This document shows, one piece after another, positions 11,559 through 55,985 of a DNA stretch of 64,000 nucleotides. Source of the stretch: Vicia villosa (Eukaryota > Streptophyta > Magnoliopsida > Fabales > Fabaceae); contig NC_081181.1 of NCBI RefSeq assembly GCF_029867415.1, positions 119,289,888 through 119,353,887 of the forward strand. Direction: 5' to 3'. A model generated the notes under the pieces. That model searched no databases. It was given only the letters and a program-made list of their open reading frames with translations, and was not told where the DNA came from. The translations under genes were made by a program, and so were the position numbers. Every line of letters starts with the position of its first letter. Position 1 is the first letter of the stretch.

Positions 11559-12544
11559 TGTTAGCTGAAGATTTCGCTTGTAATATTTGTCCTTCGAAGA
11601 AGTGGAAAATCGAAGGAAAGATGGTTACTGATGGCCATCCCTTAAAAATAAAAGAATGGCTACTGATGGCCATGCTTCGAGAATAAAGATTTCTAAGTTC
11701 GTTATGAAGATAATGAATACTGAAAGCTAGTGAAAGTATGTGTCTTCGGGGACTTAGACAAAATTTATAAAATATATTCAAGTATTACTACTTAGCGTGT
11801 TTTCGTAGTGTTTTTAATACACTGCCACGCGTCGAAGACGGACTCAGGCGGGAAGATTTGAAATTCGAAGACGGTTTCGTAACTGTCCAAGTAACAGATG
11901 GCGTCGCTGGAAGTTCTTATGAGAGACGTGGCAGCAGATTAGTGTAGGACCGTTAAGGTCGAAACTAGTATAAATATGAGTCTTAATGTTAGGATTCTGT
12001 GTGTTCATTTTGTACAAATCACTCACATATTTACTCAAGTATCAAGCGTTAAGAGAAAGAGTTCGCTGAGAAAATGTACGTATGACACCACCACTTTAAT
12101 ACATGTGTATTATCTTTCGTTTTCAAATATCTTTCAGAATTACTGCATTCCATTTACTTCTTGCCATTTACATTTCTGTATCTTTACTTTAATGTCATTT
12201 ACTTTCGAATTACTTTCATGTTATTTACTTTCAAAGTCTTTAACGTTTCTGCATTCTAAGATTCTTTACGTTTTAACAGTCCTTTTAGTTTCATATGTTA
12301 TGTTACTTATCTTTTCATTGAAATCATACTTACATATAACAAAGTGATTATCAAGATTACTTGTTCTTTAATCGAACAACGCTTATTGAAGGAGACGAAT
12401 CATGAATATGGTTCGAATGAACATTGATAACAATCTTTTTGACTATGTGTCCTAGGATCAATCTAGTCGATCCTGCGAGTAACCAAATCATATTTATTAT
12501 AGTTTGGAAGACTAGCGGTTGTTTACCGGAAATCACCGTAAACA
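11559..12544 (+). repeat. 5' LTR of the Tat-type element
   Basis: The LTR is 986 bp, with a TGTT start and an AACA end. It is nearly identical to 26280-27266. Differences seen are one inserted T near the start of the 3' copy, TTACTG/TTCCTG, AAATATGAG/AAATAGGAG, TGTACAAA/TGTAAAAA and GTTCGC/GTTTGC. It contains an ACGTGGC bZIP-core motif at about 11925-11931, some 40 bases upstream of the TATA box. Confidence 0.95.
11969..11976 (+). promoter_or_regulatory. TATA box of the Tat-type LTR
   Basis: TATAAATA lies 410 bases into the LTR, following ACTAG. The transcript start is expected about 30 bases downstream. The 3' LTR retains the box as TATAAATA at 26691-26698. Confidence 0.7.
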
Positions 12545-12546
12545 AA

Positions 12547-12565
12547 TTGGCACGCCCAGTGGGAC
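12547..12565 (+). other. Primer-binding site
   Basis: TTGGCACGCCCAGTGGGAC begins two bases after the LTR end and carries the TGG that pairs with a tRNA 3' CCA. It is a primer site of the form used by Tat-type elements. I do not assign the tRNA species. Confidence 0.8.
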
Positions 12566-12628
12566 AGTGTCAAGCGGATTGTTTTAATCAATTGCTTTAT
12601 TTTTGTCTAGACAATATCAAGACCTTGT

Positions 12629-13852
12629 ATGAACCTTAGGAACGGTAAATTAACGAACAGTGCACAACCGATTCCCAAACGAAGGTACAACAAGAAAATG
12701 GTCGTTACGGCCAGTGCAGGGGGTGATCAAGATCCCCCACAAGGTTCAGGATCAGGAGCGGCAAATTCGACTTCCACTCAAGGAACACGGGATACAACGG
12801 GTCCAAATGGATCGAGACCTGCAGATAAATCCCAGGCTATGCCTGAAAATAATACAGGACCCTCAGGGACTATTCCAGTTTCAGTGTCAACAACCGCACC
12901 CTCATCCACAAGTGCAGAGGACGTACCGTTTTCCTCGACAAATGCTGCAAACAATTTGTTTGGTCAAGGCACGAATTCTGCTTTCGAATGGAGACCAAAT
13001 AATCCATATGGAATGCCATACCAATATGGAACAGGCGTACGAGGGGCAGGACCTATATATGCCCCAACTAACAATGCGACATTTTCACCGAATGTTAGTT
13101 CAGTGGGTCGAAGTGCACACAACACTAGTTTTTCTACCCAGATGCCCCACTTTACCACAAATAACCAAGCAGCATTTCGACAAGAAATGGATGCAAGCAA
13201 CCATGATATGCTAGGGGCTTTGGCCAGAGAATTGACTTCAATTTTAAACCCACTAGTGACAAATATTGCTACTACAAATAGGGAAAACGTGGAGACTTTC
13301 CAAAAGATATCATCTCAAATGAATCGAATGGCAGAGTTCATGGGAGTAACACCACCTAGAAGGAAAGACAAACAGCCTTCGAATCAAGAAGAGATGCCCA
13401 TTATGGAACGTGTACAAGATATAGTTCCGTTATCTAGGACAGCCACTAGGGATGTAGGCCCCTCACGAAGAACAGAGACGATCGAAGGAACTCCAGTAAT
13501 TAACTTAGAGGCTTCAAATCAAAGAACCGTCCCCGTTCGACAGGAAACGGAGGAAGAGCGACCCAGATTAAGGGTTGTGGGTAGGAACGAACACCCAGAT
13601 GAGGTTGTCCAAAGAGTCAGAAGAGAAAATCTGGCTACAGAAAATAACTTAATTGCCATGATAGAAAGGGTTATGGCCAATAATGGCCTTAGTACTGGAC
13701 TTAGACGTCCAAATTATACATCCCCTATATCAGATTATATCATGCAGACAGAATTGCCCAGGGGCACTAAGGTACCCAAATTTACAAAATTTTCAGGCGA
13801 AACTAATGAGTCAACGGTGGAACATATTGCTAGATATTTGACAGAAGCATGA
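12629..13852 (+). CDS. gag: Gag, N-terminal part (interrupted)
   Basis: The ATG is the first long-frame start after the primer site, and the protein begins MNLRNGKLTN, typical of Tat-lineage Gag. The first 180 residues are low-complexity (Gly/Ser/Thr/Asn-rich). A helical, charged region follows, and residues from about 360 (YIMQTELPRGTKVPKF) enter the conserved retrotransposon Gag fold. The frame stops at a TGA (13850-13852) in the middle of that fold. The same frame continues with homologous sequence beyond the stop, so this is a nonsense mutation rather than a natural C terminus. Gag would form the virus-like particle in the cytoplasm. Confidence 0.85.
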   Translation: MNLRNGKLTNSAQPIPKRRYNKKMVVTASAGGDQDPPQGSGSGAANSTSTQGTRDTTGPNGSRPADKSQAMPENNTGPSGTIPVSVSTTAPSSTSAEDVPFSSTNAANNLFGQGTNSAFEWRPNNPYGMPYQYGTGVRGAGPIYAPTNNATFSPNVSSVGRSAHNTSFSTQMPHFTTNNQAAFRQEMDASNHDMLGALARELTSILNPLVTNIATTNRENVETFQKISSQMNRMAEFMGVTPPRRKDKQPSNQEEMPIMERVQDIVPLSRTATRDVGPSRRTETIEGTPVINLEASNQRTVPVRQETEEERPRLRVVGRNEHPDEVVQRVRRENLATENNLIAMIERVMANNGLSTGLRRPNYTSPISDYIMQTELPRGTKVPKFTKFSGETNESTVEHIARYLTEA

Positions 13853-14614
13853 GACTTAGCGGGAAATGAGGATTGAAGGATCAAATATTTCCCTAGTTCG
13901 CTGACAAAGAATGCCTTCATTTGGTTTACTACTTTGCCACCAAATTCGATAGATGCGTGGGCATACTTAGAAAGGCTGTTCCATGAGAAATTCTATATGG
14001 GCCAAACTAAGATAAGTTTGAAAGAATTGGCCAGTATTAAGAGAAAATTCACAGAAACAATTGATGACTACTTGAATAGGTTCCGTCTGTTGAAATCAAG
14101 GTGTTTTACAACAGTCCCAGAGCATGAACTTGTCGAGATGGCTGCGGGTGGTCTAGATTATTCAATAAGAAAGAAACTAGATACCCAATACCTTAGGGAC
14201 ATGGCCCAATTAGCAGACAGGGTTCGACAGGTCGAACGTCTGAAAGCAGAAAAAGTTAGGGCAAATAAAAGTTATAAGAAGGAAAGGGTAGCGTACGTCG
14301 AAGCCGAGGACGCTGATGATAAGTCTTTCAATGACTCATATAGCCCTGAAGAAGTCGAAATAGACTTGGCTGAGTTGAAAGAAGCGCCACCTTATGCCTG
14401 CAAATTGCTAAATCCTGCAAATGGAAAAAACCCAGTAGAAAACGATAAGAATGATAGGTTCCCTAAGAAAACTTATACATTCGACGTTACCAAGTGTGAT
14501 GAAATATTTGATTTACTGGTAAAAGATGGCCAAATGATACTACCTCCAAATTCCAAAATTCCTCCGTTGGAACAACGGAAGAAAGAGGTTTTTGTAAATA
14601 TCATGGTTTTTTAG
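13853..14614 (+). pseudogene. gag: Gag, central and C-terminal part after two in-frame TGA codons
   Basis: The reading frame is unchanged from the upstream part. A second TGA lies nine codons after the first, at 13877-13879. Then the conserved retrotransposon Gag segment appears: FIWFTTLPPNSI, AWAYLERLFHEKFY, LASIKRKFTETIDDYLNRF and ELVEMAAGGL. The Lys/Glu-rich helix and acidic stretch that follow are usual for this family. The frame ends at 14612-14614, just after a T5 run. The expected Cys-His knuckle lies in the -1 frame (CKYHGFLGHKTSQC, 14593-14634). The break is therefore either a 1-base deletion or a -1 frameshift site. Confidence 0.85.
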
Positions 14615-14679
14615 GCCATAAAACTTCTCAATGTTTTCTTTTCAGGGATCTAATTCAAAATGCTATCAATGATGGAAGG

Positions 14680-16761
14680 TTGAAGTTTGCTGACAAGACC
14701 AAGAGTCACATGAGGGTCGATACCAATCCGCTGAACATTGCTGACGCTAGCCTCTGTGAGGTAGAAGATATCAACATGGTGGAGGCATCTGAAGTCGAAG
14801 TTGTGGAAACTAAAACAATGTTCAATGGAAAGCAGGCTACTGAAAGCCTAAATGGTGACATAGTCTTCAATACTGATGTTGAAGAATCTTCCAAGACAGA
14901 GATAACTGAAGCATCGAAGGAAGAAAACAGTGAGGCCACTGAAGACCTCAGGATGAAACTCCAGAAAATCCAAATCTCTGAAGTTCCTCCAGCAGTGGTT
15001 AACATGGTCAGCGCCAGACGCCCAGTGTCTGAGTTTGGCGAACTAGAGACATGGCTGACGAGGCAAAATGGGGGCATCGAAGTTCCTCCAAAAACTGAGA
15101 GCCTCAAAGACTACCTCTGGAATTGCCATGAGAGAAATGGTGGTAAACAATGGATGTGTCCAAGGTGTTCGATCATGCTGAATCGAAGGGTCGAAGCCAA
15201 CTTCGAAAGGACTCGACGTGAAAGATGGGAACACCCAGGAAGAGAGCCAAATCCCCTACTACAACTGTACCCAAGGATGGAGGAAAGCTTAGTAGGATTT
15301 TTGGTCAGATGCCACAAAGGAAACACTGAAGTTGCTCTGTGCCCCAGATGTGGGGCAGTCTATGATGAAATGCTAGCACGATCATTCGAACGTGTGTACT
15401 GCTACATGAGTCGAGAAACTCAGGGGTTGCGTCCTAACCTGTACGGTTTCGACATATGGACTCCAACAAAGAGGCCTGATAGCCCACACCCCAGAGCTCG
15501 AAGGGTAACATTCAAAATCCCCGCAGATGCACCCAGGGATAGGTGGGTGCAAGCTGATGCAAGAACCAACAAATGGCGAAGTTGGGACCAAGGAGGGAGA
15601 ACTGCAATGGCATATAGGAAACAATTTCAAAGACCAAATCGAGAGGCGTATCGATTGGAGAATTATAAAGGAAAAAATCCTATGTCTCGGTCCCAGTGGA
15701 GAAGACATCAGAGAATAAAAAAGGCTCAGAAGGAATACAGGCCAAGAGAAACTGGAGAATCTAGTAGCAACCAAGTCCCACACCAGGGGGCAAAGTCAAA
15801 CAAACCTCCGGTGGAACGCAGATTATTCGAAGCTGAAAAACTCTTGGATGAAGAAGAAAAGATGCGTTCAAATTCCTGGAAAGAAGAGGATAGAATGACA
15901 AATGATTTTGATTCTGATGGAGTGTCATCTATAAACTTGAATTGCAATGTTGTATCCGTACTCCCTCACGAGTTTAATCAGGAAACTGAAGTGGAAGACT
16001 GTGAAGAGGCTGATATCGAAGAAATGGCAAAACACAGACCTGTGTGTTACTATGTGCTGAATAATGGTGCAGTTGAAGAACAGAATGCTTTCTTCGAAAG
16101 GCCTGATGAGGGTATGCGAAATCATTTGAAGCCACTCTATATCAGGGCTAAGATTGAGAATGTTGGCGTTAATAAAGTCCTAGTTGATGGGGGAGCAGCA
16201 GTGAACCTAATGCCTCAATACATGCTAAAGAGAATTGGTATGTTCGATACGGATATAAGGCCACATAACATGGTTTTATCTAACTACGAAGGCAAAATAG
16301 GACAAACACTGGGAGTCGTTCAGGTCAATTTGACAGTAGGCTCAGTTACCAGGCCAACTATGTTCATGGTTATACCAGCAAAAGCAAACTACAACCTTTT
16401 GCTTGGTAGGGAATGGATTCATGGGGTAGCAGCTGTGCCCTCAATAATGCATCAGAGGGTGACAATTTGGAGGGAAGATGGTATAGTGGAGAATATCGAA
16501 GGTGATCAGAGTTACTATATGGCTGAAGTCAACCAGGTGAATAAAACCAACTTCGATAGGAACCTGGCAAACATAGGCCCTTGTCATGCTGCAGAAGAGA
16601 TGTATACCCCAAATAAAAATGCATTGTACTATTTAACTTTACACCCAAATGGATTCCAATGGGATAGAGAGATCATGGATGGTCCAGCAGATACAGCACC
16701 ATTGGAGAATTATCCAACAGTACGGCCAACAGGCTGGGACGATGACATTAATCATGTCTGA
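14680..16761 (+). CDS. pro: Gag-protease frame: Cys modules and aspartic protease
   Basis: This frame is open upstream of the listed start (non-ATG) through the Cys-His knuckle at 14593-14634, so it is naturally joined to Gag rather than started anew. Residues 1-100 are acidic. Residues 149-163 and 211-224 are two copies of a C-H-x8/9-C-P-R-C module, likely zinc-binding. Residues 270-400 are basic and low-complexity. The retropepsin-like protease spans about 480-600, with VLVDGGAAVNLMP (active-site Asp in D-G-G, residues 503-505) and YNLLLGREWIHG. D-G-G in place of D-T/S-G is common in plant Tat elements, to my recollection. The stop TGA overlaps the ATG of the pol frame. The protease would mature Gag and Pol in the particle. 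Confidence 0.88.
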   Translation: MKFADKTKSHMRVDTNPLNIADASLCEVEDINMVEASEVEVVETKTMFNGKQATESLNGDIVFNTDVEESSKTEITEASKEENSEATEDLRMKLQKIQISEVPPAVVNMVSARRPVSEFGELETWLTRQNGGIEVPPKTESLKDYLWNCHERNGGKQWMCPRCSIMLNRRVEANFERTRRERWEHPGREPNPLLQLYPRMEESLVGFLVRCHKGNTEVALCPRCGAVYDEMLARSFERVYCYMSRETQGLRPNLYGFDIWTPTKRPDSPHPRARRVTFKIPADAPRDRWVQADARTNKWRSWDQGGRTAMAYRKQFQRPNREAYRLENYKGKNPMSRSQWRRHQRIKKAQKEYRPRETGESSSNQVPHQGAKSNKPPVERRLFEAEKLLDEEEKMRSNSWKEEDRMTNDFDSDGVSSINLNCNVVSVLPHEFNQETEVEDCEEADIEEMAKHRPVCYYVLNNGAVEEQNAFFERPDEGMRNHLKPLYIRAKIENVGVNKVLVDGGAAVNLMPQYMLKRIGMFDTDIRPHNMVLSNYEGKIGQTLGVVQVNLTVGSVTRPTMFMVIPAKANYNLLLGREWIHGVAAVPSIMHQRVTIWREDGIVENIEGDQSYYMAEVNQVNKTNFDRNLANIGPCHAAEEMYTPNKNALYYLTLHPNGFQWDREIMDGPADTAPLENYPTVRPTGWDDDINHV

Positions 16762-19700
16762 GTCTTCGTTCTTCGAAAAGATTTCGGCCTATGTGGCCGA
16801 GAACAAAAGGAAGGTGGCTCTCGAAGCCGAACTATCAAATACAAAGATAGATGCAGTTCTAACCAAAGAAGGAATAACAGAATTGGAGATACGTACGAGT
16901 TTCGAACTCTCTGAAGACACGGCTCCAGACGAAGAGATCATAAGAGAAGAACCAAATCAAAGGTTAGATGCAATATACGACGAGGAACCTTTGGGATTCG
17001 AAAAAGACCCAATGGCGTCGAATATAAAGATGTTGGCCCAAGATCCACTTGAAGAAGTAAATCTTGGAGACAATGATCAAAAAAGGGTAACATATATCAG
17101 CGCGAAACTAGAACCAGAATTAAAAGCAACGGTCATCAAAATGCAGAAAGAAAACAGAGATTATTTTGCTTGGGATTATGATGAGATGCCTGGTCTAGGA
17201 AGAGACTTAGTCGAATTAAAATTACCAATAAAAGAAGGGAAGAAGCCTATAAAGCAAACTCCCAGAAGATTCGCGCCAGAGATTCACTCGAAGATTAAAG
17301 CAGAGGTCGAAAGGCTCTTGCGTTGCAAATTTATCCAAACTACAAGGTATGTTGAATGGATTGCTAATATAGTACCTGTAATTAAAAAGAATGGCTCATT
17401 AAGAGTATGCATAGACTTTCGTGACCTTAATGCAGCTACTCCTAAAGACGAGTATCCCATGCATGTAGCAGAAATGCTAGTAGACTCAGCCGCAGGTTTT
17501 GAGTATTTGAGTATGTTGGATGGATATTCGGGATACAATCAAGTCTTTATAGCAGAAGATGATGTATCCAAAACAGCATTTCGTTGCCCAGGGGCAATAG
17601 GCACTTACGAATGGGTTGTGATGCCTTTTGGTTTGAAAAACGCTGGGGCAACTTATCAAAGAGCAATGAATTCTATATTTCATGACTTTATAGAAACATT
17701 CATGCAAGTATATATAGATGACATTGTGGTAAAATCTACCTCGGGTGTGAGTCATCTCGATCATCTGAGCCAATCATTCGAAAGAATAAGGAAATATGGC
17801 TTGAAGATGAACCCCCTCAAATGTGCTTTCTTTGTGCAGGCAGGTGATTTCTTGGGTTTCGTAGTCCACAAAAAAAGGATAGAAATTAACCAGAACAAGA
17901 CAAAAGCCATTATGGAAACCAAGTCTCCATCCACGAAGAAAGAACTACAATCATTATTGGGTAAGATAAATTTCTTAAGGAGATTTATCTCTAACTTGAG
18001 TGGACGCACGCAAGCTTTCTCACCTCTACTACGGCTTAAGCAAGGAAAATTTGAATGGCGTGCTGAACATCAAGAAGCTTTCGATCAGATAAAGCAATAC
18101 TTGACTTGTCCACCAATTCTATCTTCCCCAAATGGGAAGAAGCACATGCGCCTATACATTTCAGCGTCAGATAAAACAATAGGCAGCATGCTGGCACAAG
18201 AAGATGAGAATGGCATCGAAAGAGCCATTTATTACTTAAGTAGAGTACTCAATGATGCAGAGACTAGATACACTGACATAGAAAAGCTCTGCCTTTGCAT
18301 GTATTTATCCTGTATCAAACTTAAGTATTATATAAAGCCAGTTGATGTTTACGTTTCATCTCATTGTGATGTTATTAAACATATGTTATCTAAGCCAATA
18401 CTACATAGTCGAATTGGCAAGTGGGCTTTGGCCCTTACTGAATATTCATTAATATTTCAGCCTCTCAAGGCAATGAAAGGTCAAATTGTGTCAGACTTCA
18501 TTGTCGACCATGCGGTGGTTGAGAATCATCAGCATTATGTAGACTTAAAACCTTGGAAGTTATACTTCGATGGTTCAACACATAGAGAGGGTACTGGAGT
18601 TGGAATGTTGATAATTTCTCCTGATGGAATTCCAACAAAGCTCAAGTATAAAATCGAAGGTCCATTATGCTCCAACAATGAAGCTGAATACGAAGCATTA
18701 ATTGCTGGACTTAAGGCTTTGTTAGAATTGGGGGCAACCAGAGTCGAAATTAAAGGAGACTCCGAATTGGTCATCAAACAATTGACAAAGGAGTACAAGT
18801 GCATCAAAGAGAATTTGATCATGTATTTTGTCATTGCAAATAGGCTACTCAAGAGATTCGAATATGTGGAATTAAAACACGTATCAAGGGTGAATAACCA
18901 GGAAGCAAACGACTTGGCACAATTAGCTTCAGGATATAAAGTATCAAAAGAAAAGTTGGAGGAATTGATTGAAGTAAGAGGAAGAGCAATGTCTACTAAA
19001 CTTTCTCCAAGTGATCTAGAGAACTCACAATTGGGTTATGCCAACGACGAAGAATTCGAAGTACTAAATATAGACTCGTTGGCAGACACAGATTGGAGGA
19101 GTCCAATTATTAACTATCTGAAAAATCCTTCGACGGATACAGACAGGAAAATCAAGTATAGAGCCTTGTCATATTTCCTGATGGGAAATGAATTGTTCAA
19201 GAAAACTCCTGAAGGGGTATTGTTGAAATGCTTGGGTGAAGCAGAATCATACTTGGCTCTGTCGAACGTACATAGTGGGGCATGTGGTGCACATCAAGCA
19301 GGGCACAAAATGAAATGGCTCTTGTTTCGTTATGGGATGTATTGGCCTTCGATGTTAAAAGATTGCATAGAGTTTGCGAAAGGGTGCCAAGAGTGCCAAG
19401 AACATGCAGGTATCCAACACGCTCCAACAAACGAATTAAGTACGATAGTAAAACCGTGGCCTTTTAGGGGATGGGCATTAGATTTGATTGGAGAAATTCA
19501 CCCCAAGTCATCTAAAGGTCAAAGGTACATTTTGGTAGGAATAGACTATTTCACAAAATGGGTCGAAGCAATACCACTGGCAAATGTGGATCAAGAGGCT
19601 GTGATTGAGTTTATTCAGAAACATATTATATATAGGTTTGGAATCCCAGAAAGTATAACAACCGATCAGGGATCAGTCTTTACTGGACGAAAAATGCAAG

Positions 19701-20362
19701 ACTTTGCCAGAGAAATAGGTTTCAAGTTATTTACTTCTACACCTTACTATGCTCAAGCAAATGGACAGGTTGAAGCAGCAAACAAAATAATAATTGGCCT
19801 TATTAAGAAACATGTGGGAAAGAAACCCAAGAACTGGCATAAGACTTTAGATCAAGCACTCTGGGCTTGTCGAACATCTCCAAAAGAAGCTACAAATACA
19901 ACTCCTTTCCAGTTGACATTTGGACATGATGCAGTACTCCCAATTGAGATATATTTGCAATCGGTAAGAATACAAAGACAAGCAGACATTCCTCCCAACG
20001 TGTACTGGGAGTTAATGATGAATGAGTTAGTAGATTTGGACGAAGACAGACTTCGAGCACTGGAAATGATAAAAAGGCAAAAGGAAAGAGTGTCCAGAGC
20101 ATACAACAAAAAGGTGAAAGGTAAAACTTTTGTTAATAATGACTTAGTTTGGAAAGTTATTTTACCTATAGATCGAAAGAATCAGGCACTTGGTAAATGG
20201 TCCCCACATTGGGAAGGACCCTTTCGAATCTTAAAAGTATTTTCGAACAATGCTTACGAAATTGAAGAGTTAGCAGAAGATCGTAGGATCTTAAGAGTAA
20301 ACGGGAAATATTTGAAGAGATATAAACCAAGTATGTACGAAGTAAAGATTGCAAAAACGTAG
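16754..20362 (+). CDS. pol: Pol: reverse transcriptase, two RNase H domains, integrase
   Basis: I place the start at ATG 16754, which overlaps the preceding stop as ATGTCTGA. The same frame also has an earlier ATG at 16649. The product is about 1202 residues and uninterrupted. Domains in order: RT (about 17240-17800) with IDFRDLNAATPKDEYP, MPFGLKNAGATYQR and catalytic YIDD (about 17709-17720); a gypsy-type RNase H/connection region (about 18110-18490); an archaeal-type RNase H (about 18550-18930) with LYFDGST, EAEYEALIAGL, GDSELVI and NNQEANDLAQLA supplying the D-E-D-D residues; and integrase with an H-H-C-C finger (HSGACGAHQAGH, CQECQEH), core D (ALDLIGE), D (TTDQGS) and E (GQVEAANK), and a C-terminal GPF motif (HWEGPFRI). 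Pol copies the RNA and inserts the cDNA. All catalytic motifs look intact. Confidence 0.95.
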   Translation: MSESSFFEKISAYVAENKRKVALEAELSNTKIDAVLTKEGITELEIRTSFELSEDTAPDEEIIREEPNQRLDAIYDEEPLGFEKDPMASNIKMLAQDPLEEVNLGDNDQKRVTYISAKLEPELKATVIKMQKENRDYFAWDYDEMPGLGRDLVELKLPIKEGKKPIKQTPRRFAPEIHSKIKAEVERLLRCKFIQTTRYVEWIANIVPVIKKNGSLRVCIDFRDLNAATPKDEYPMHVAEMLVDSAAGFEYLSMLDGYSGYNQVFIAEDDVSKTAFRCPGAIGTYEWVVMPFGLKNAGATYQRAMNSIFHDFIETFMQVYIDDIVVKSTSGVSHLDHLSQSFERIRKYGLKMNPLKCAFFVQAGDFLGFVVHKKRIEINQNKTKAIMETKSPSTKKELQSLLGKINFLRRFISNLSGRTQAFSPLLRLKQGKFEWRAEHQEAFDQIKQYLTCPPILSSPNGKKHMRLYISASDKTIGSMLAQEDENGIERAIYYLSRVLNDAETRYTDIEKLCLCMYLSCIKLKYYIKPVDVYVSSHCDVIKHMLSKPILHSRIGKWALALTEYSLIFQPLKAMKGQIVSDFIVDHAVVENHQHYVDLKPWKLYFDGSTHREGTGVGMLIISPDGIPTKLKYKIEGPLCSNNEAEYEALIAGLKALLELGATRVEIKGDSELVIKQLTKEYKCIKENLIMYFVIANRLLKRFEYVELKHVSRVNNQEANDLAQLASGYKVSKEKLEELIEVRGRAMSTKLSPSDLENSQLGYANDEEFEVLNIDSLADTDWRSPIINYLKNPSTDTDRKIKYRALSYFLMGNELFKKTPEGVLLKCLGEAESYLALSNVHSGACGAHQAGHKMKWLLFRYGMYWPSMLKDCIEFAKGCQECQEHAGIQHAPTNELSTIVKPWPFRGWALDLIGEIHPKSSKGQRYILVGIDYFTKWVEAIPLANVDQEAVIEFIQKHIIYRFGIPESITTDQGSVFTGRKMQDFAREIGFKLFTSTPYYAQANGQVEAANKIIIGLIKKHVGKKPKNWHKTLDQALWACRTSPKEATNTTPFQLTFGHDAVLPIEIYLQSVRIQRQADIPPNVYWELMMNELVDLDEDRLRALEMIKRQKERVSRAYNKKVKGKTFVNNDLVWKVILPIDRKNQALGKWSPHWEGPFRILKVFSNNAYEIEELAEDRRILRVNGKYLKRYKPSMYEVKIAKT

Positions 20363-20602
20363 ATACTCAGGGTACTACGAAAGCCAAAATGGTCAGGCAT
20401 GTGTCAAAACATATATGTCACATTGATCAAAATGGCTTTACAATCAGAATAGATAGTTAAATGGAAGGAAAAGAGTCTAAAGAGACACCAAGATATTTTT
20501 CATTCAAAACATAGGAGTATGTGCATTACAAAAGGATCCAAAGAACAGGATCTGAGATTACAAAAGAAAAAGAAAGCATAAAAAACCTAAGGTAAATACT
20601 TG

Positions 20603-21337
20603 CTAGTTAATCCTTTGGTCTAAACCTTCCAAGGACAGCACAGGCGAGGGTTCAGCTTCGAACATATCCATGGCTCCAGAATTGCGCATCCTCTTCACTA
20701 CACCTTTCCTAAGGAAAATGTAACTGAGGAGTCTCCCGTATGGAAGACAGGTCACACTCCCTTGACGGTTGACACCAATAGAGACAGCCTTAACAAGTCC
20801 TTTAAAGATCATCAAAGGAATGTTAATTTTCTTCCCTCGAAGACCACAGAGGATAAACTCCAAGTCTTCAACCATGATGTTGTTTTCATCAATCCTCCGA
20901 GGTTGAAAGTTTCCCACGAGCATCTGGTGCCAGATCCTGATAACTTTGGCACTGAAGCGGTCGTTATCCATAAGAGTTCTCAACATGAGATGAGTAGTCA
21001 TGTTGAAACTGTTGTCATCAAAAGTTTCCCCAGAGTTATTGCATCTCATTAGGTTGGCAATAGTGGTGGGAGTGATGCTAAGACGAGCATGTCGAATATC
21101 AGAATCAATGGTGGTCCTACCTTCAGGATCTATGCGTGGGGACGCATTCATCCAGAATTCTGCCAACATGTTAGGGTAGATAGCACCCTCCAAGACTTCT
21201 TCAAAATAGAAGTCCAGTTCTTGATTGACAAAGAGGGTTTCGATGTTGATGAAGTTACGAACAAGTTCATCCTCAGAAAGTCTGAACTCGTTCTTGATGA
21301 GGGCTTTGATGTTATTAAAGGAAAGAGGTTCAGCCAT
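20603..21337 (-). CDS. Antisense gene B: 244-residue protein of unknown function
   Basis: This is a single uninterrupted frame on the strand opposite gag-pol. It starts with ATG at 21337-21335, has a TATA box about 105 bases upstream and ends with TAG. The sequence is globular, with no signal peptide or membrane segment. Segments such as LAEFWMNASPRID, TIANLMRCNN, IRIWHQMLVGNFQPR and ILCGLRGKKINIPLMI resemble the general layout of the so-called putative plant transposon protein domain found in many plant retroelement-linked ORFs. This is a tentative match. The last codons and stop (AAC/TAG/C) resemble those of antisense gene A. Antisense extra ORFs are known in the Tat lineage, so it may be an accessory factor or a regulator of the element. 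I cannot state a function. Confidence 0.75.
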   Translation of the reverse strand: MAEPLSFNNIKALIKNEFRLSEDELVRNFINIETLFVNQELDFYFEEVLEGAIYPNMLAEFWMNASPRIDPEGRTTIDSDIRHARLSITPTTIANLMRCNNSGETFDDNSFNMTTHLMLRTLMDNDRFSAKVIRIWHQMLVGNFQPRRIDENNIMVEDLEFILCGLRGKKINIPLMIFKGLVKAVSIGVNRQGSVTCLPYGRLLSYIFLRKGVVKRMRNSGAMDMFEAEPSPVLSLEGLDQRIN

Positions 21338-21441
21338 TGCAAGGAAAAGAAAGGTTTTTGAGAAAGAAGTTGTGTGTTTTCTTTTTCTGTGTTTAGTTTG
21401 GAGAGAAAGCGCATGAATAAAGAAATGAAGGCAATATTAGA

Positions 21442-21451
21442 CCCTTTATAT
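21442..21451 (-). promoter_or_regulatory. TATA box of antisense gene B
   Basis: CTATATAAAG on the minus strand lies about 105 bases upstream of the ATG at 21337, a normal plant promoter spacing. It is followed by a purine/pyrimidine-rich leader. Confidence 0.7.
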
Positions 21452-21617
21452 AGACTGGGGATACTGAAGGGTGGTTTTAAATTGTTAATGATTGATTGGA
21501 CTGCGTTTGGTTTTCCAAAGAGAGAAGTTATGGCTTCCACCGTTTCCCGCCCTTGGAAGTTGAGAAGTAATCATGAAACTGATGCACGCACGTCTTAAAT
21601 TGACGTTTTGAAGAAAG

Positions 21618-21625
21618 TGACGTCA
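21618..21625 (-). promoter_or_regulatory. TGACGTCA bZIP site upstream of antisense gene B
   Basis: A perfect TGACGTCA palindrome sits about 170 bases upstream of the gene B TATA box. Further TGACG/CGTCA cores lie at about 21601-21605 and 21660-21664. Clustered TGACG motifs resemble as-1-type elements bound by TGA/bZIP factors. Function is inferred only. Confidence 0.5.
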
Positions 21626-21901
21626 CTGTTCAATAATGATTATGGCTAGAGAAGTGGAAACGTCAAGTCTAGAGGCAAGGATGCTGCGAAGGATGTTCAG
21701 GGTCTATACGTTGCATTAAATAAAAGCACTGTAGAAAATCTAAAGATATATTTTGGCAGAAATTGAAAGATTCGCTAAAATAGTGCTGGCGAACATTGTA
21801 GATATAAACGAAGAAAATAGAAGTCAAGCATACGAATAGATGTTTCTACAAAAGCTTCGATTACAAAACGAAAATACAACAAGTTGCAGGATTGGAAACA
21901 G

Positions 21902-22980
21902 CTAGTTAAAATCCTCAGGGAGATTGTTTTTGATCTTCAAGTATTGAGTTTCCCACGAAGACATACGAAGCTCAATTAGTGCCCGTTGTTTCTTCAATCT
22001 TTCGATCTCTGGCACTAATTTCTGTGTAGTCTCGAAATGTTTAATCCCCGACTGCACCACTTCGAGCAAATCCTGTTGGTTGGATTTTTGTATGGCTGCC
22101 TGACAACGTTCAGCTTCCTTTATCTTGTCCTCGAGTACCTTTATCTCTTGTTTCCAGGAGTTGATGTTCTTCTCATAATCATCAAAAGCCTTCTGATTTT
22201 CTGAATGCTTAAGCTTGAGGGCCTCACCTTGTTTCGTTGCATCCACAGCAGAATTCCATGAAGAGTCATGAGAGGCCATTGTCTCAGATAGCTCTTTTTC
22301 GACATTTTGCTTTTGAAGAATGTTGGCCTGGAGTTGATCAATTAGAGAACCTAGCAGAACAATTACCTCTGAAACTTCTGTGGAGACTTGAAGCAAATCT
22401 ACTTTCTTTAAAAGTTGATTTAAGTTGTGACTCTTAATAGGTTCCCGGCTGAGAACATCCACAAGATTGACCCCAAAGAATCTCTCTTTTATTTGTCGAA
22501 GGAGGCTAGGAATATCTTCCTTGTCACCAGATTCTACAGTCACAGCTGGAGAGACATCAAGTTCCGAAGGCGAAGAAGTATTCACATTCATAATAGCCTT
22601 TAGGAAACTAAGAGGATCAGTTTGCTTAAGTTGTTCCAGCTCCGAAGGAGTAGGCTTCGCAGGGGCAAGCGTCGAAGTTGTCCTAGGAATGGCTTCTGTA
22701 TCAAGAGTCGAAGTTCCTTGAGGATCTTGTTTTTCTGGTTTAGAAGTCTCCTCCATAGCATCTTGCTCCGATGCAGTATCTTCGCTGTCATGTGGTTGTA
22801 GGTTCACATTGTCGCTGCCTGAGAATGGGTGATCTTCTTCCAAATTTTTGTCTTGGTGAGTAGGTGGGGATTCGTCAGTGGATTGGCTTTCTTCGACTGG
22901 TTCATTAGGCAATATGGTGGCGATTGGCCTAACATCTTCGAAGACTGGGGAGAGAACATGAGTTTTGTTTTGAGAGGTAT
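21902..22980 (-). CDS. Exon 5 of antisense gene A: acidic region and coiled coil
   Basis: The frame is also open upstream to an ATG at 23008, which would give a free-standing 368-residue protein. I favour splicing into codon 851, at acceptor AATACAG/AT, because a branch-point-like CTAAC precedes it and phase is kept. The first 150 residues are rich in Glu, Asp, Ser, Thr and Pro. From about KKVDLLQVSTEVSEV to the end, heptad-like Leu/Ile/Val spacing with many Lys and Glu predicts a long coiled coil, suggesting oligomerisation or partner binding. The stop is TAG at 21902-21904. Confidence 0.75.
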
Positions 22981-25827
22981 CTGTATTAAACGGAGCAGAG
23001 TTAGTCATAAAGATAAGCCTTTGAGGGGTTTATTGACGAAAGTTAAAGATTGGCGATTACCGTAAAGTTTGTCAACATTAATGGTAAGGCCATGATCCTT
23101 AAAACCTGAAGTGGCAGTGCCAGCATCATCCTGCAATAACAAGGTAAAATGTCAGTTCAATCATTTAGTTAAAATTACAAGATAATGTGTGGGGTGAAAC
23201 CCAAATACCTTGGTTGGGATATTATCTGGACTTGAATTATGACTTTCAACAACGAAAGCATTGCTGGCAACTTTCAAAGGAGACTCTTCAGAGGATGCCT
23301 TATCGCTAGGAGAAGCAGCTTTAGAGGGACTTATCCCTTTCCCTTTTCTTGAAGGGGTAACAGCTTTTTGTTTCTTCCTGTGTCCTTGTCTAGTACGAGG
23401 AGGGGATTTATCTTCGCCATCTGAGGCAGCTGTCGAAGAAACTTTCCGCTTCGAACCTGTTGGGGGTTTCGAGCTCTGGAAAATAGATGATAAGTAAGAT
23501 GAGTACTACTCACAGATTATACAAGATTAAGAATATGAGATGGGTATGTACCGTGGGCTTCTTGTCAGTGACGATGGAGTCACTCTCACTTGGTTTGTTG
23601 CTCTTAGATGTCCCAGAATCCTTTTGGGCAGGAGCTTCCTTAATCTTCCTCCTTCGTGCAACAGCTGTAGTTGAAACTGAAATCAGTATATCAGCAAAGA
23701 AAAGAAAAGTCAGTCGAAAAGATTGTCTGAATCCAAACCTTCAGGTATTGGAGTCAAGACACGAACATGTTCAAGATCTATATGTAGATGTCCTTTGAAA
23801 GTATCCAAGGTATGCTTAGTCGGAACCACTCGTTCGGCGCGTTTTTTAGTACTGTTTTGAAGGTCTTTTAGAACGTTGCCACACACAAACCAATTTGGAA
23901 AAGGAGGGCTCAAAGCCACACCAAAATCCGCACTTGGCAGTGGAGGGAATTTTGGAGGATTAAGTTTGAAAGCCACTTCATAACGTAGTTCTGGTCGAAC
24001 ATACGAGGGCAATTTCAACTTATCCAGTTTGGCAGAAAACATTTCGCGCAAAATGACTGCAGCCTCACGAACGGTCCGACTAAGATCATCAGGCCTGTAG
24101 ATAGTTTCAAAGAATTTTTGAAAAGCTTGGATTTCTTTAATATGAGTTGAAGTACCTTTGTGAAAATTCTCCTGCACATCAGCAAAAGCTGCAGTTAGTT
24201 CTTGAGCAAGACTATCGGCATCAAAGATTTGGGAGCTATAATAATCCGTCCACCATTGGTGAAAATCTGGTGTAGAGTAAAAAGCAGGTTCGAAAGGAAC
24301 AGGAGAAAAATTGGTGGTGCCAACGTATTTGTTGATTTTTGTTTCACATTCTCCTTCAGTCAAGTACAAGGTATGGAAACACATATGGCTCCTTTTCTCA
24401 TATAAGCACTTGGGTTTTATTTGAACCAACCCAAACTGTCTCGAGACCAAATTTGGTTGATAGCACACGAGAATACATTGACCTTTTGATGGTCGAAGGT
24501 GATGAGAAAATAACCTTGGAGTCAGAAAGGCTTCCCAAATTTCCATAGACTCAGTTTGTTGATCCTGAGATGTTGATGGGAATTTTCGAGTAAACCATTC
24601 GGGACCTATTGTTCTGTGTACAAACGGGGCCATAGAAGGATCGAACTGATTACGCTGGGCAAACATCATTGAATACGCCAGAAAGTGTTCACGAAGCTTC
24701 CCAGTTTCTTCTTTTGGAGTTAGGTAAGCTAACCTGGTCCCTTCTATAGTTCGATTCTTGATTTTGCTATCTTCCTCATTGATGTTTCCTCGAAAGGGAA
24801 GATGAGTTTCGAATGTAGCGTTAAGCCACAGTTGCAATATCCAGAAAGGACCAGCATAAAGCAAAGTACCGGATTTGTAATTCTTGGTAAGGTTTGCAGC
24901 TTCGCTGAGGTTTTCATAAAGAAACCCTAAAAGCAGTTGGCTGAGGTTGAGCTTTTTTCCAGCATGCAACTGATTAGCCATGCAAAGGTATCTCTTTGCA
25001 ACTTGTATGGATCTTGAGCAGAAGGCACATCGTGAGAGCCATAGCGCTAAGAAAGCAATATGCTCTTCAGCGGATACTGCCGTTTCGGTGGTGATATGGT
25101 GCTTCTGGATGAATGCAGTATAAGTGACTAGCGAGTCATTAAAACCAATAGTATCAGTATCCATCTCATTGGGATCGAAGGTTTCGCCAGTTGGTCGAAG
25201 TCCTGTAATCGCAGCCACATCGAAAAGAGTGGGGGTAACCATTCCACATGGGAGATGGAAAGTGTTGTGAGAAGCATCCCAAAAGTGAACCGCTGCTACT
25301 AGCATGGGTTGGTTATATTCTAAGCCTGTTTTTGACAGTTGAATCAAATCGTATATTCCTAACGATTTCCAGAAGGATTCTTTCTGTTTCTCTACTTTTT
25401 CTAACCAGGCATAGTACAAATCAGGATCTTTGGCTAAAGGAATTGACCTAAACACTTTTAAAAAGTGGGTCATATAGTTTAACCTAATTTTCGTCAAAGC
25501 CAAAGGGGTTACAGTTGAAGTTTCTTCAATGTTAGCAGATTCTCCTGAGGGAGAACAACCATCTTCATCTATCTTAGTTTTGCTAACTAATGGTCTAGTC
25601 TTGTAATAAGCAGGGAAGAATCTATTCAGAGATGAAATATTTTCACCTGGTAACGGACCCATAAAAGCAAGAGATTTTCCAGAAAGTTCAAAGGGAATGA
25701 TTACCTGGGAAGCGTAAATAGTGAGTACTTCTTCGGTGTTAAGGTTTGGAATGTGCTCTTGTTCCCCAGACCGTGTTGTTGATTGGAGCTTCAGAACAGG
25801 TTGAAGAACATTTGAAGATGAAGCCAT
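21902..25827 (-). CDS. Antisense gene A: five-exon plant-mobile-domain protein, predicted 1209 residues
   Basis: I predict exons at 25827-23739, 23676-23552, 23475-23209, 23130-23061 and 22980-21902. The introns are 62, 76, 78 and 80 bases, all GT...AG. Exon lengths sum to 3630 bases, exactly 1210 codons with the stop, and the frame is open throughout. The fourth intron has a TGACTAAC branch-point-like motif about 20 bases from its acceptor. Exon 1 encodes a plant mobile domain (the aminotransferase-like PMD family). Exons 2-3 encode a Ser/Lys-rich basic linker with RRRK and GHRKKQK, possible nuclear localisation signals. Exon 5 encodes an acidic region and a C-terminal coiled coil. PMD proteins occur as host MAIN/MAIL factors in silencing and genome stability, and inside transposons. 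Here the gene runs opposite to gag-pol with its own promoter. The family call is firm; the role in the element is unknown. Confidence 0.82.
23739..25827 (-). CDS. Exon 1 of antisense gene A: plant mobile domain
   Basis: The 696-codon exon starts at ATG 25827-25825. Residues 115-520 carry the domain. The most diagnostic part is at about 181-222, with HFWDASHNTFHLPCG followed by VTPTLFDVAAITGLRPTG, the usual FW...TNTFH.P.GE.TPTL.DV...GL...G pattern of PMD. Further on, GPFWILQLWLNATFE (about 325-340) is also characteristic. No transmembrane segment is seen. Without splicing the frame runs on to 23710, giving a 705-residue product. The intron with donor AAG/GTTTGG at 23738 continues it instead into the basic exons. 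Confidence 0.85.
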
Positions 25828-25940
25828 AGAGAGATTTTTGATTGAGAAAGCAAGATTTTGAAAAGATTGAGGATGTTGGTTTTTCTGTTGAAGAAGATGA
25901 AGAAATAGGAATGAAAGGTTGTATAGAAGTGCAAGACCAA

Positions 25941-26002
25941 GTATTTAAAGGTTTAACGGAAACCCTTTTTAAATCTTTTGGGTAAAACCCAAAGAACACG
26001 TG
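25941..26002 (-). promoter_or_regulatory. Promoter of antisense gene A: TATA box and G-box
   Basis: On the minus strand CTTTAAATAC (25941-25950) lies about 115 bases upstream of the ATG. A G-box CACGTG in the context GCCACGTGTT (25997-26002) lies about 50 bases further upstream. A TGACGT core occurs at about 26165-26170. G-boxes of this form bind bZIP/bHLH factors and are common in light-, stress- and ABA-responsive promoters. There is no expression evidence. Confidence 0.6.
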
Positions 26003-26267
26003 GCGGCTGGTGATTTAATCCGACGGCGGTCGAATAAATTAGCTTCACTCCTAGTATGTAGGAGTAATGATCAAGAAGTAAGATAAAAAACGTGGGAATG
26101 TAAGTTATGAGAAGACATCTTTGAAAATGACAAGACGTTTCGGGAACAGGGTCATCAATGATTATGACGTTAATCAGCAGTCTTGGAACTCTCAAAGATC
26201 AATAAGAAACGAAATCTTATGATGACAAGAAACGCCTATTTCTGTTGATTTTCGAAACAGGCATTTA

Positions 26268-26277
26268 TTGGGGGCAA
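26268..26277 (+). other. Polypurine tract
   Basis: ATTGGGGGCAA lies immediately upstream of the 3' LTR, the expected place for the plus-strand primer. A TTGGGGGCAA-type tract is common in plant Tat elements. Confidence 0.75.
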
Positions 26278-26279
26278 TT

Positions 26280-27266
26280 TGTTAGCTGAAGATTTCGTCT
26301 TGTAATATTTGTCCTTCGAAGAAGTGGAAAATCGAAGGAAAGATGGTTCCTGATGGCCATCCCTTAAAAATAAAAGAATGGCTACTGATGGCCATGCTTC
26401 GAGAATAAAGATTTCTAAGTTCGTTATGAAGATAATGAATACTGAAAGCTAGTGAAAGTATGTGTCTTCGGGGACTTAGACAAAATTTATAAAATATATT
26501 CAAGTATTACTACTTAGCGTGTTTTCGTAGTGTTTTTAATACACTGCCACGCGTCGAAGACGGACTCAGGCGGGAAGATTTGAAATTCGAAGACGGTTTC
26601 GTAACTGTCCAAGTAACAGATGGCGTCGCTGGAAGTTCTTATGAGAGACGTGGCAGCAGATTAGTGTAGGACCGTTAAGGTCGAAACTAGTATAAATAGG
26701 AGTCTTAATGTTAGGATTCTGTGTGTTCATTTTGTAAAAATCACTCACATATTTACTCAAGTATCAAGCGTTAAGAGAAAGAGTTTGCTGAGAAAATGTA
26801 CGTATGACACCACCACTTTAATACATGTGTATTATCTTTCGTTTTCAAATATCTTTCAGAATTACTGCATTCCATTTACTTCTTGCCATTTACATTTCTG
26901 TATCTTTACTTTAATGTCATTTACTTTCGAATTACTTTCATGTTATTTACTTTCAAAGTCTTTAACGTTTCTGCATTCTAAGATTCTTTACGTTTTAACA
27001 GTCCTTTTAGTTTCATATGTTATGTTACTTATCTTTTCATTGAAATCATACTTACATATAACAAAGTGATTATCAAGATTACTTGTTCTTTAATCGAACA
27101 ACGCTTATTGAAGGAGACGAATCATGAATATGGTTCGAATGAACATTGATAACAATCTTTTTGACTATGTGTCCTAGGATCAATCTAGTCGATCCTGCGA
27201 GTAACCAAATCATATTTATTATAGTTTGGAAGACTAGCGGTTGTTTACCGGAAATCACCGTAAACA
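26280..27266 (+). repeat. 3' LTR of the Tat-type element
   Basis: The LTR is 987 bp and nearly identical to 11559-12544. It ends GTAAACA, followed by the TATCC duplication. On the opposite strand it lies just upstream of the promoter of antisense gene A, so LTR sequences could also influence that promoter. Confidence 0.95.
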
Positions 27267-27680: not shown

Positions 27681-28495
27681 GGGAAGTTATATTGGTTAAA
27701 GGGCTTAAGAATAATTTAATTGGTATAAGACAATTATGTGACAAAGGTAATGGTGTAACGTTTGACCTTTTGGTTGTCGAGTCCTAAAATCTAAAATCAA
27801 AGAAACTCTATTTAAGAAGTGGAAATACCTACGCAATGAATTCAAATAAAATTCATTTAAATGATATATATCTCATGAGTTACTGTGATGAATCTTTGAT
27901 ATGATATAGGAGAATAACTCACATCCACATGGATCACTTGAATAAGTTGTCCCAAAAAAGATCTCGAAGACGGTCTACCACACTTACATTTTTTTAAAGA
28001 ATAAATTATGTGATGCCTAGCAAAAAGGCAAGCAAGTAAAGACCATTCTTATAGCTAAAATTATTGTTTCTACTTATTGACCCTTACAACTAGTTCATAT
28101 GGACCTTTTTGGCCCATCCAGAACCGTAAGTCTATGTGGAAACTTCTATGCTCTTGTTAGTATGAATAAATATTCTCTCTATACATGAACATTATTATTA
28201 TCTTAGGAAAGAGATGCAAATGTTGCCTTTGGAAAATTAGCCAAGGTTATCCAGAAAAAAAAACAAAAGAGTAAGCATTATATCAATAAAAAGTGACCAT
28301 GGTGGATAATTCCTAAATGAGGAATTCGAAAATTTGTGTAATGAGAATGGTATTCGGAAAACATTTTCGGTTCCACGAACTCCCAAAAAAAATGGGGTAG
28401 TAGAAAGCAAAATTAGCTCTCTGGCAGAGCTTGCAAGAAAAATGCTCAATTAGACTAATATTTCTAAATATTTTTGAGCTGATGCAGTAGGCACT
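27681..28495 (+). pseudogene. Sirevirus-like Ty1/copia pol remnant: pre-integrase and integrase core
   Basis: Several frames encode copia motifs in order: LVKGLKNNLIGIRQLCDKGN (pre-integrase), LVHMDLFGPSRT (integrase start), then SDHGGEF, LCNENGIRKTFS and NGVVESKISSLAELARKML (integrase core with the catalytic D and E). Stops and frameshifts are frequent, so it is dead. It breaks off at AVGT where the next element is inserted, and the coding sense resumes at 40799. The wording matches Sirevirus/SIRE-type copia elements of legumes. Confidence 0.8.
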
Positions 28496-29829
28496 TATTG
28501 AAGCGGTAAAGCGGAAGAAAAAAGTAAGTATTTATTTAGTTTTATCATATCGTCTCCATAGTGATTAGTGCTATTGAATTGTCGTTCGACAGTTTCTTGA
28601 GTTTATGAGTTTCGGTTTGAATGGGTTTAAAGTAAATGCGGAAATTAAACATATAAATAGGAAAGAATTAATTCTTTGGAGAAGAGAAACTATCAAGCAT
28701 GAATTCACACCACTAGTCACAAACTTAAACCTATCGGTCAGTTGCACCCAACCTAGAATACTCGTCAAAGTCATCACGTATCTCTCACATCAGTGACAAT
28801 TTTTGCAACACCTATGAGACGTATCATAACTAAGGTTATATCTAACGCAAAGTTGCGAGAACAAATGTATTCTCGCGTCGGCGATCTCTCGCGCGGAACT
28901 CAAACACTGAAGCATTAAGCTTCAATACCCATAAATCTTATTAGCCCTAAATCTATCTCTAGCATCCATAAACTAATAGATATTCATCCTTAATCAAGAT
29001 TTGTGAGGTACATCTCTATAGCAACATAAATCCAAACATAAATGCAAAAAGAACAAGGAAGACAACAAGTTTGATTTCTAAAGGTGGCTTTATACAACAC
29101 CATGAGCCATAAATATACATATGTTTAAAGTAAATATACCAACAAACCCAACAAATGGAAAATACATAGAGAAGAGAAAATATAAATTGGAATACCTCGG
29201 TTCGTCAACACCGATTGAAGCAAATCCACCTCCTAAACATCAAGATGCATGATCCATTGTTGTTTTTGAACTTCTCTCATCAAAAGAATGAGGTGACGGT
29301 GTTGGGACACAAAAATATCCAACTCATAACCTAAAAATATGTTTTTTTGCCCCTAAATACAAGTCTGAAACTCGCAAATCCCGCTTAGCGGCACAGAGCC
29401 TGCTAAGCCCGGTCTGCTGCAACTTGAAATCTTGTTTCGGCCATAACTTGAGAACCATAACTCCAATTTACGCCCAGTTCGAAGCATTGAAAAACTTATT
29501 CAATGATCTATCTAAAAATGCCTAAATATTAACCAAATTGATTATTTTTCTCATCTTTGTTTTGAACCTTATTCTTTGATGAATTGCTCAAAATTACATT
29601 CTTAAAGCTTAGCCATTGGCTTTTATTACTCAATGCTGCAACCATGCATGAATACCTATAAAATTTATAAAAATTGGTCAAACGGTACATAAATGAATTG
29701 AAAAATCAAAGAATACAAAATATGTACAAATATAATGAAAACGTACTCATTCACGCATAAGTTAAGGAAAAAGAGTCGATAAGTACAGCAAAACTATGTA
29801 CAAAAATAACTACAATTTGGCACTTATCA
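28496..29829 (-). repeat. Cyclops-like LTR A (3' LTR of the minus-strand element)
   Basis: Aligns throughout with 39474-40798 and, in inverse orientation, with 48374-49737. It contains CCCGCTTAGCGG and GCTAAGC motifs and the CGCAAAGTTGCGAGAACA palindromic patch. TTGATAAGTG on the minus strand marks its 5' end, next to the polypurine tract. Confidence 0.8.
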
Positions 29830-36481: not shown

Positions 36482-36914
36482 TTCTTGTTGTTAGTAATTG
36501 ATATTAGAGTCATAGGTTTAGAGTTATCGCGTTTAGGCCGTAGTTTCCTCACGGTTTTAGCCAATACGCGTTTAGAGTCGAAAAAATCGGTTTTTGGAAA
36601 AATTGTGTTCGATTGTAAAACTTTTTTTGCTTACTGAGAGCAGAAAAATCATGCGATCAATACTCCCATACTCTAGAAGAGTAAGGGAATTCGACCCCAA
36701 ATCTCCAAATTCCACTTTTTTCTATTTTTAGTTAATTTTTTTACTGTTTTTGCTGTTTCAAAACAATCAAAAAAATTCCATAATTCTAATTTCGTCTAAT
36801 TAGATGGAATTCTATGTTTTTATATTTTTCTGTATTTATTTTAATCGTTTTCCTTATTTCTATTTGTTTATGCCTGTTTGGGACATAGTTGATATTTCTG
36901 TGTTTGTTGATGAC

Positions 36915-39467: not shown

Positions 39468-39473
39468 TTTTGT

Positions 39474-55737: not shown

Positions 55738-55985
55738 AGGATCATGAACCAAAGTCTACTAAAGATTGTAGACTAAATGAGAATTGGTCAAAATGAACAA
55801 ATCATGAATTAAAGTCGATCAAAGATTGTAGGCAAAGTGAGAATTGACCAGAATGAATATAATATGAATCAAAGTCTATCAAAGATTATTGACAAAGTGA
55901 GAATTGGTCAAAATGAACAAATCATGAATCAAAGTCTATCAAAGATTGCATACAGAGTGAGAATAGACCAAAATGAATATATTCA
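55738..55985 (+). repeat. 60-bp (20-codon) coding tandem array, four copies
   Basis: ATCATGAA(T/C)(C/T)AAAGTC.ATCAAAGATTG units recur four times with a 60-base period. The unit translates as an HE(P/S)KS.KDCRQSENWSK-type peptide. That matches the copia segment normally found once, just before the RT (FGPVV) start. The period keeps frame. Confidence 0.8.

What the first reader, a model, noticed from the sequence alone, without database searches (positions are those of the whole stretch)
21902..25827. A five-exon plant-mobile-domain gene carried antisense inside a young Ty3/gypsy retrotransposon
Seen: opposite to gag-pol, four GT-AG introns of 62-80 bases join five exons into an exact 1210-codon frame (3630 bases) with PMD, basic linker and coiled coil. 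The gene has its own TATA box and G-box. Because it is on the minus strand relative to the element RNA, its introns are not removed from the genomic transcript and can persist through retrotransposition. Known: antisense extra ORFs occur in the Tat lineage, and PMD proteins act in plant silencing and genome stability. Inference: the element may carry a self-protection or silencing-interference gene expressed by an independent unit.
Basis: partly seen in the sequence, partly recalled or inferred. Interest (0 to 1): 0.88.

Follow-up and report, generated by a model that had tools for sequence, protein, structure and literature searches.

The report
Antisense PMD gene inside plant retrotransposon
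A young plant jumping element carries, on the strand opposite to its own replication genes, an intact five-exon gene for a plant-mobile-domain protein and a second small antisense gene; such accessory genes are already known in this lineage, but the several-intron structure and the pairing make their unknown role easier to test.

Summary
On the minus strand at 25827-21902, four GT-AG introns (62, 76, 78, 80 nt) join five exons into 3630 nt, 1209 codons plus stop. Exon 1 matches the plant mobile domain (PF10536) at 122.8 bits, E 2.3e-35. A splice-site search recovers exactly these introns; 0 of 200 dinucleotide shuffles reach its score in each of six settings. Scoring codon usage too, it prefers a longer intron 2. 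The host element is 11559-27266: LTRs differing by 4 substitutions and 1 indel, TATCC duplications, and RT, RNase H, a second RNase H-like domain and integrase, which mark the Tat clade.

PMD genes in Gypsy elements, antisense extra ORFs and their own promoters are published, so this is a new member of a known kind. I did not find the introns or the gene pair described, in capped searches. The silencing role is inference only: no transcripts, no relatives, no dN/dS.

The parts
11559..12544 (+). 5' LTR (986 bp)
   Evidence: 99.4% match to the 3' copy over 990 bases; boundary set by TG..CA ends and the TATCC duplication
12548..12565 (+). putative primer binding site, tRNA not identified
   Evidence: stretch starting TGG after 3 bases beyond the 5' LTR
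12611..13849 (+). gag N-terminal open frame (413 aa), ended by a stop just before the capsid domain
13877..14611 (+). gag capsid-domain open frame, same frame as the preceding one
   Evidence: PF03732 49.7 bits, profile 1-96 of 97
14512..16758 (+). protease-containing open frame
   Evidence: PF13975 21.3 bits, below its cut-off of 28.2; frame
16637..20359 (+). pol open frame: RT, RNase H, second RNase H-like domain, integrase
   Evidence: PF00078, PF17919/PF17917, PF13456, PF17921, PF00665
20603..21337 (-). second antisense gene, 244 aa, Transposase_32-like
   Evidence: PF20167 37.2 bits (cut-off 45), E 3.5e-9, profile 13-176 of 177
21445..21452 (-). TATA box (TATATAAA) of the second antisense gene
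21902..22980 (-). PMD gene exon 5 with stop (acidic region, then coiled-coil-like region)
22981..23060 (-). intron 4 (80 nt)
23061..23130 (-). PMD gene exon 4
23131..23208 (-). intron 3 (78 nt)
23209..23475 (-). PMD gene exon 3 (basic, S/T/P-rich linker)
23476..23551 (-). intron 2 (76 nt; alternative 23430-23589)
23552..23676 (-). PMD gene exon 2 (with the basic stretch RRRK)
23677..23738 (-). intron 1 (62 nt)
23739..25827 (-). PMD gene exon 1, plant mobile domain at residues 157-526
   Evidence: PF10536 122.8 bits, E 2.3e-35
25942..26002 (-). upstream region of the PMD gene: G-box 26002-25997 and TATA-like TTTAAATA 25949-25942
26280..27266 (+). 3' LTR (987 bp), preceded by a G-rich tract (putative PPT)

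Best explanation
This is a young Tat-clade Ty3/gypsy retrotransposon whose region between pol and the 3' LTR holds two separate antisense accessory genes. The larger is a five-exon gene for a 1209-residue protein: plant mobile domain, basic linker, acidic region, coiled-coil-like tail. It is probably transcribed by Pol II from an internal antisense promoter and spliced. Its introns persist because the element's genomic RNA carries them in the non-spliceable orientation (strand logic). Shown: the open spliced frame, the PMD and the element's structure. Inferred: expression, nuclear location, and function. My most likely function is a nuclear, chromatin-associated protein that acts on the element's own chromatin or transcription, probably by competing with or redirecting host PMD (MAIN/MAIL1-type) silencing. 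I put about 0.85 on a real spliced accessory gene and about 0.3 on counter-silencing as the function.
For: PMD match over profile 1-346 of 347. Codon preference puts the predicted frame first for exons 2, 4 and 5 and a close second for exon 3; minus-strand frames of the introns are all negative (all-gene training). Intron/exon AT contrast. ACGT cores are 3.5- to 4-fold enriched upstream of both antisense genes (9 of 500 and 3 of 500 shuffles reach the count) but not in the 5' LTR, 346 of 500. The second gene has a canonical TATA box. Published parallels: PMD-A1/A2 clades are exclusively Gypsy-encoded and MAIN/MAIL1 silence TEs; antisense gene23 of Grande is transcribed from its own promoter and its protein is nuclear.
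Against: No RNA evidence. No relative was found (collections of prokaryotic genomes and viral contigs, where plant relatives are hardly expected), so no selection test. With the LTRs only 0.4% apart, an intact frame says little about selection since insertion. The codon-scored search prefers a different intron 2. With other training sets the predicted frame is not first for exon 2 (antisense genes only) or exon 4 (pol and protease only). The shuffle test destroys the open frame as well as the splice sites, so it does not prove splicing alone. The PMD gene lacks a canonical TATA box. The host silencing factors are PMD-C, not the Gypsy-type clade, so a silencing role cannot simply be carried over. 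Antisense transcription would itself make dsRNA, which could harm the element (raised in PMC7264820).
Confidence: 0.5

Rival explanations
1. The PMD protein helps the element's own replication or integration (nuclear import, integration-site choice, or RNA or cDNA handling), like accessory proteins of retroviruses, and has nothing to do with silencing.
For: A retroviral-accessory-like role for antisense aORFs is proposed in PMC7264820 (passages). Basic stretch RRRK at residue 704 and a basic linker at 701-800, with 26 K+R against 9 D+E. Generic SMC-like tail, as reported for other antisense aORFs.
Against: No interaction or localisation data. Expression from an independent antisense unit would be an odd way to supply a replication protein in step with gag-pol (inference).
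Confidence: 0.3
2. The antisense transcription itself is the functional or self-limiting part (dsRNA and small RNAs), and the protein matters little.
For: Raised in PMC7264820 and PMC12786077 for antisense transcripts of LTR elements.
Against: A 1209-codon spliced frame with a complete conserved domain, plus a second separate antisense frame, would hardly be kept for an RNA-only role.
Confidence: 0.1
3. No multi-exon gene: the minus strand holds an unspliced 705-codon PMD ORF and a separate 368-codon ORF (21902-23008).
For: Both single-exon ORFs exist, and a survey by ORF finder would report just these. Some of the splice sites are weak.
Against: The linking exons are open in frame with usable splice sites; 0 of 200 shuffles match in each setting. 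Introns are AT-rich.
Confidence: 0.12
4. A recent capture of a host PMD gene (transduction) or a nested MULE insertion, rather than a lineage gene of the element.
For: PMD-C genes have been captured by MULEs. Introns imply DNA-level origin or long residence (inference).
Against: PMD occurs in 57% of Ogre elements, so inheritance within the lineage is simpler. PMD clade membership was not tested here.
Confidence: 0.08

Closest known systems
Gypsy-encoded plant mobile domain proteins (PMD-A1/A2 clades; PMD in Ogre elements)
   Same: PF10536 domain carried by a plant Tat-clade Ty3/gypsy element
   Different: This copy has four predicted introns, lies antisense between pol and the 3' LTR, and is paired with a second antisense gene. 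Whether published Gypsy PMD genes share this could not be checked; clade membership not tested.
Antisense aORFs of Retand-lineage elements and Grande gene23
   Same: Antisense position between pol and 3' LTR, likely own promoter, SMC-like coiled-coil hits
   Different: Those mostly carry Transposase_28 (PF04195), which gave no match here (exon 1, exon 5 and second gene, E up to 1). Internal region 13.7 kb, longer than any in the published Retand table.
Athila 3' aORF with Transposase_32 (sunflower Athila 14)
   Same: Transposase_32-like domain in an accessory ORF after pol
   Different: There it is in sense orientation in an Athila element; here it is antisense, in a Tat element, next to a PMD gene, and under the Pfam cut-off.
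Host MAIN and MAIL1 (PMD-C)
   Same: Plant mobile domain
   Different: Host genes that silence TEs, of a different PMD clade; no evidence that this protein acts in that pathway.

Membership tests
Ty3/gypsy LTR retrotransposon, Tat clade | LTRs, 5-bp target duplication, order RT - RNase H - integrase | tested here: met
Ty3/gypsy LTR retrotransposon, Tat clade | additional aRH domain, between RH and INT in angiosperm elements | tested here: met
   RVT_3 (PF13456) at residues 640-759, between RNase H (470-599) and the integrase zinc domain (from 870); rule from PMC6317226 passages. That PF13456 stands for aRH is recalled.
Retand lineage | antisense ORFs with Transposase_28 between pol and 3' LTR | tested here: not met
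   antisense ORFs present, but no PF04195 match at E up to 1 in exon 1, exon 5 or the second gene; exons 2-4 were not scanned at that limit, only the frame around exon 3 at E up to 0.1
Ogre lineage | PMD in an extra ORF (57% of Ogre elements) | tested here: met
   frequency
Ogre lineage | gag-protease and RT-RH-INT frames separated by an intron-like gap (average 274 bp) | tested here: not met
   the frames 14512-16758 and 16637-20359 overlap
Ogre lineage | position in an RT/RH/INT phylogeny | not testable with these tools
   no reference plant sequences were obtained
Plant mobile domain family (PF10536) | profile match above the curated cut-off | tested here: met
   122.8 bits against 34.9
PMD-A (Gypsy) clade | placement in a PMD tree | not testable with these tools
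   protein database switched off; no relatives
Transposase_32 (PF20167) | profile match above the curated cut-off | tested here: not met
   37.2 bits against 45, although E 3.5e-9 over positions 13-176 of 177
Own-promoter antisense accessory gene (Grande gene23 type) | antisense transcription from an internal promoter | not testable with these tools
   no RNA data; sequence motifs only

The most novel reading that the evidence does not exclude
Some Tat-clade retrotransposons keep a two-gene antisense cassette. A spliced, multi-exon PMD gene and a Transposase_32-like gene, each with its own ACGT-core promoter, make nuclear proteins that counter host silencing of the element. The reversed strand lets the element keep introns in a gene copied through RNA. 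Surveys built on ORF finders have missed the spliced form.
Probability: 0.15. Interest if true: 0.8.

Novelty: new member of a known kind. Interest (0 to 1): 0.4.

Why it matters
Gypsy-encoded PMD proteins are widespread and their function is open, while host PMD proteins silence transposons. A clean, intact, young copy with predicted junctions gives exact targets for RNA and protein tests. If the spliced form is general, extra-ORF surveys that used getorf or ORF Finder would have split such genes in two and missed their middle exons.

Tried and rejected
Relatives: exon 1 scanned against genome contigs (22 pattern matches, none confirmed) and viral contigs (5 matches, none confirmed); pol against viral contigs (no match); second gene against viral contigs (7 matches, none confirmed). 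These scans use six short peptides and reach close relatives only, in collections of prokaryotic genomes and viral contigs, so the misses say little. Solved structures: no match for exon 1 up to E 1. So dN/dS and a PMD tree could not be made.

Structure: single-sequence AlphaFold models of the second gene (mean pLDDT 32.1) and exon 1 (34.4) are too poor to search; no fold search was run.

Common origin of the two antisense genes or promoters: BLASTP between the proteins gave 21.6 bits, E 0.038, over 30 residues, not accepted as homology; the upstream regions align no better than shuffles (74 of 300 reach the score).

NCBIfam gave no match for exon 1 or the second gene. The bacterial-type promoter scan found nothing and says nothing about a plant promoter.

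Considered and rejected: a chance frame (0 of 200 shuffles per setting); an element without a real PMD. No Rfam match and no tRNA gene in the window.

The splice-site weights, the aRH reading of PF13456 and the substitution rate are recalled, not from a call.
Full report
Element. The window holds one nearly complete LTR element at 11559-27266. The two LTRs (986 and 987 bp) differ by 4 substitutions and 1 single-base indel, and both sides carry the 5-base duplication TATCC (a fifth mismatch, at 12545, lies just outside the LTR once the duplication sets the boundary). At 0.4% divergence the insertion is young; with the commonly used grass rate (recalled) this is of the order of 0.2 million years. 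The plus strand encodes gag, protease and pol. Pol (16637-20359) is one open frame with RT, RNase H, a second RNase H-like domain (PF13456) and integrase. That order is typical of the angiosperm Tat lineages Ogre and Retand (PMC6317226, passages). Gag is split: a 413-codon N-terminal frame ends in a stop at 13850-13852, and the capsid domain lies complete in the next open stretch of the same frame, 13877-14611. So this copy's gag is interrupted, although the antisense genes are intact.

The antisense PMD gene. The Pfam match to PF10536, run on the unspliced 705-codon ORF, covers profile 1-346 of 347 at residues 157-526 with E 2.3e-35. Because a 700-base stretch with free choice of splice sites might be bridged by chance, I searched for the best spliced path between the exon 1 and exon 5 frames with approximate plant splice weights (recalled) and repeated it on dinucleotide shuffles. 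In each of six settings (three thresholds, with and without codon scores) 0 of 200 shuffles reached the observed score; in 199, 198, 109, 111, 34 and 26 of the 200 no path existed. The shuffles destroy the open frame along with the splice sites, so the test speaks for the gene model as a whole. With codon scores added, intron 2 becomes 23589-23430; this junction is the least certain.

Coding scores. With training on all genes, the predicted frame is first of six for exons 2 (0.13 against 0.11), 4 and 5, and a close second for exon 3 (0.09 against 0.10 in one plus-strand frame); all minus-strand frames of the four introns are negative, while three plus-strand intron frames are weakly positive (up to 0.10). 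With training on exon 1 and the second gene only, exon 2 is second (0.0 against 0.04) and one minus-strand frame of intron 1 is positive (0.11). With training on pol and protease only, exon 4 is not first. The support is therefore clear for exon 5, moderate for 3 and 4, weak for 2. Residues 701-800 are strongly basic (26 K+R against 9 D+E) and 801-1000 acidic. The tail gives only generic SMC-like matches, E 0.0024-0.027.

A second antisense gene. It matches Transposase_32 (PF20167) at 37.2 bits, E 3.5e-9, over nearly the whole profile, but under the curated cut-off of 45. It has TATATAAA about 110 bases before its ATG. Upstream of both antisense genes, ACGT cores are enriched: 4 observed against a mean of 1.0, and 5 against 1.4; 9 and 3 of 500 shuffles reach these counts. 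The 5' LTR is not enriched (4 against 4.5). The PMD gene has a perfect G-box but only a TATA-like TTTAAATA. The two upstream regions are not detectably homologous (74 of 300 shuffles score as high).

What is known. [quoted passage not shown] PMD is found in 57% of Ogre elements (PMC6317226, passages), and it was the most frequent extra domain in a survey of LTR elements (PMC9289625, passages). Antisense ORFs between pol and the 3' LTR are standard in Retand elements, with Transposase_28 in 97% of clusters (PMC11963269, parts 1-3 of 5 read). Grande's antisense gene23 has its own promoter and a nuclear product (PMC7264820, passages). Transposase_32 is known from a sense Athila ORF (PMC11728184, passages). 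MAIN and MAIL1 act with the phosphatase PP7L (PMC7156037, passages). The original survey of extra ORFs (Steinbauerova 2011) and the Grande gene23 paper were not read.

What I did not find described. Searches listed no paper whose title or abstract start describes a multi-intron antisense accessory gene, or a PMD gene paired with a Transposase_32-like gene. This is a limited check: three lists were cut (20 of 73, 20 of 80 and 15 of 70 papers), most listed papers were not opened, and subscription journals are largely missing. Two large surveys predicted ORFs with getorf or ORF Finder, which do not model introns; they would report this gene as two ORFs of 705 and 368 codons. Against a claim of novelty, the PMD phylogeny paper translated the surroundings of TE-associated PMDs with Fgenesh, a gene predictor that models introns (recalled), so spliced Gypsy PMD genes may already lie in its data. 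A 2020 review asks for a search for antisense and spliced transcripts.

Lineage. The element is Tat by its second RNase H. Within Tat it is unresolved: PMD favours Ogre; the antisense 3' position resembles Retand; Transposase_28 was not matched; the internal region (13.7 kb) is longer than any in the Retand table; no tandem arrays lie between pol and the 3' LTR; and the Ogre-type gap between protease and RT frames is absent.

Mechanism. The anatomy supports an independent antisense transcription unit whose introns survive because they are not introns on the genomic RNA. The function remains inference. I favour a nuclear chromatin or silencing-related role, with a replication-accessory role close behind. 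An intact frame in so young a copy is weak evidence for selection, and I could obtain no relatives to test it: the genome search did not complete (eleven tries), the protein database was off, and scans of two contig collections that hold no plant genomes by description found none.

Noticed in passing
   Followed up: yes
13850-13876: Gag of this otherwise young element is interrupted by an in-frame stop just before a complete capsid domain, so this copy may depend on others.
   Followed up: partly
28495-29829 and 39470-40798: Direct repeat pair, 86% identical over 1336 bases, with a further inverted relative at 48902-49597 (76%); possibly LTRs or another repeat family.
   Followed up: no
36804-37340: Separate 178-codon ORF with a weak gag match (PF03732, 21.6 bits, cut-off 24.1), probably a remnant of another LTR element.
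   Followed up: no
46049-46240 and 46715-46879: Two short arrays of the same 67-base unit, 2.9 and 2.5 copies.
   Followed up: no
53184-53683, 55741-55977, 62674-63261: Tandem arrays with units of about 60, 60/120 and 88/157/245 bases.
   Followed up: no
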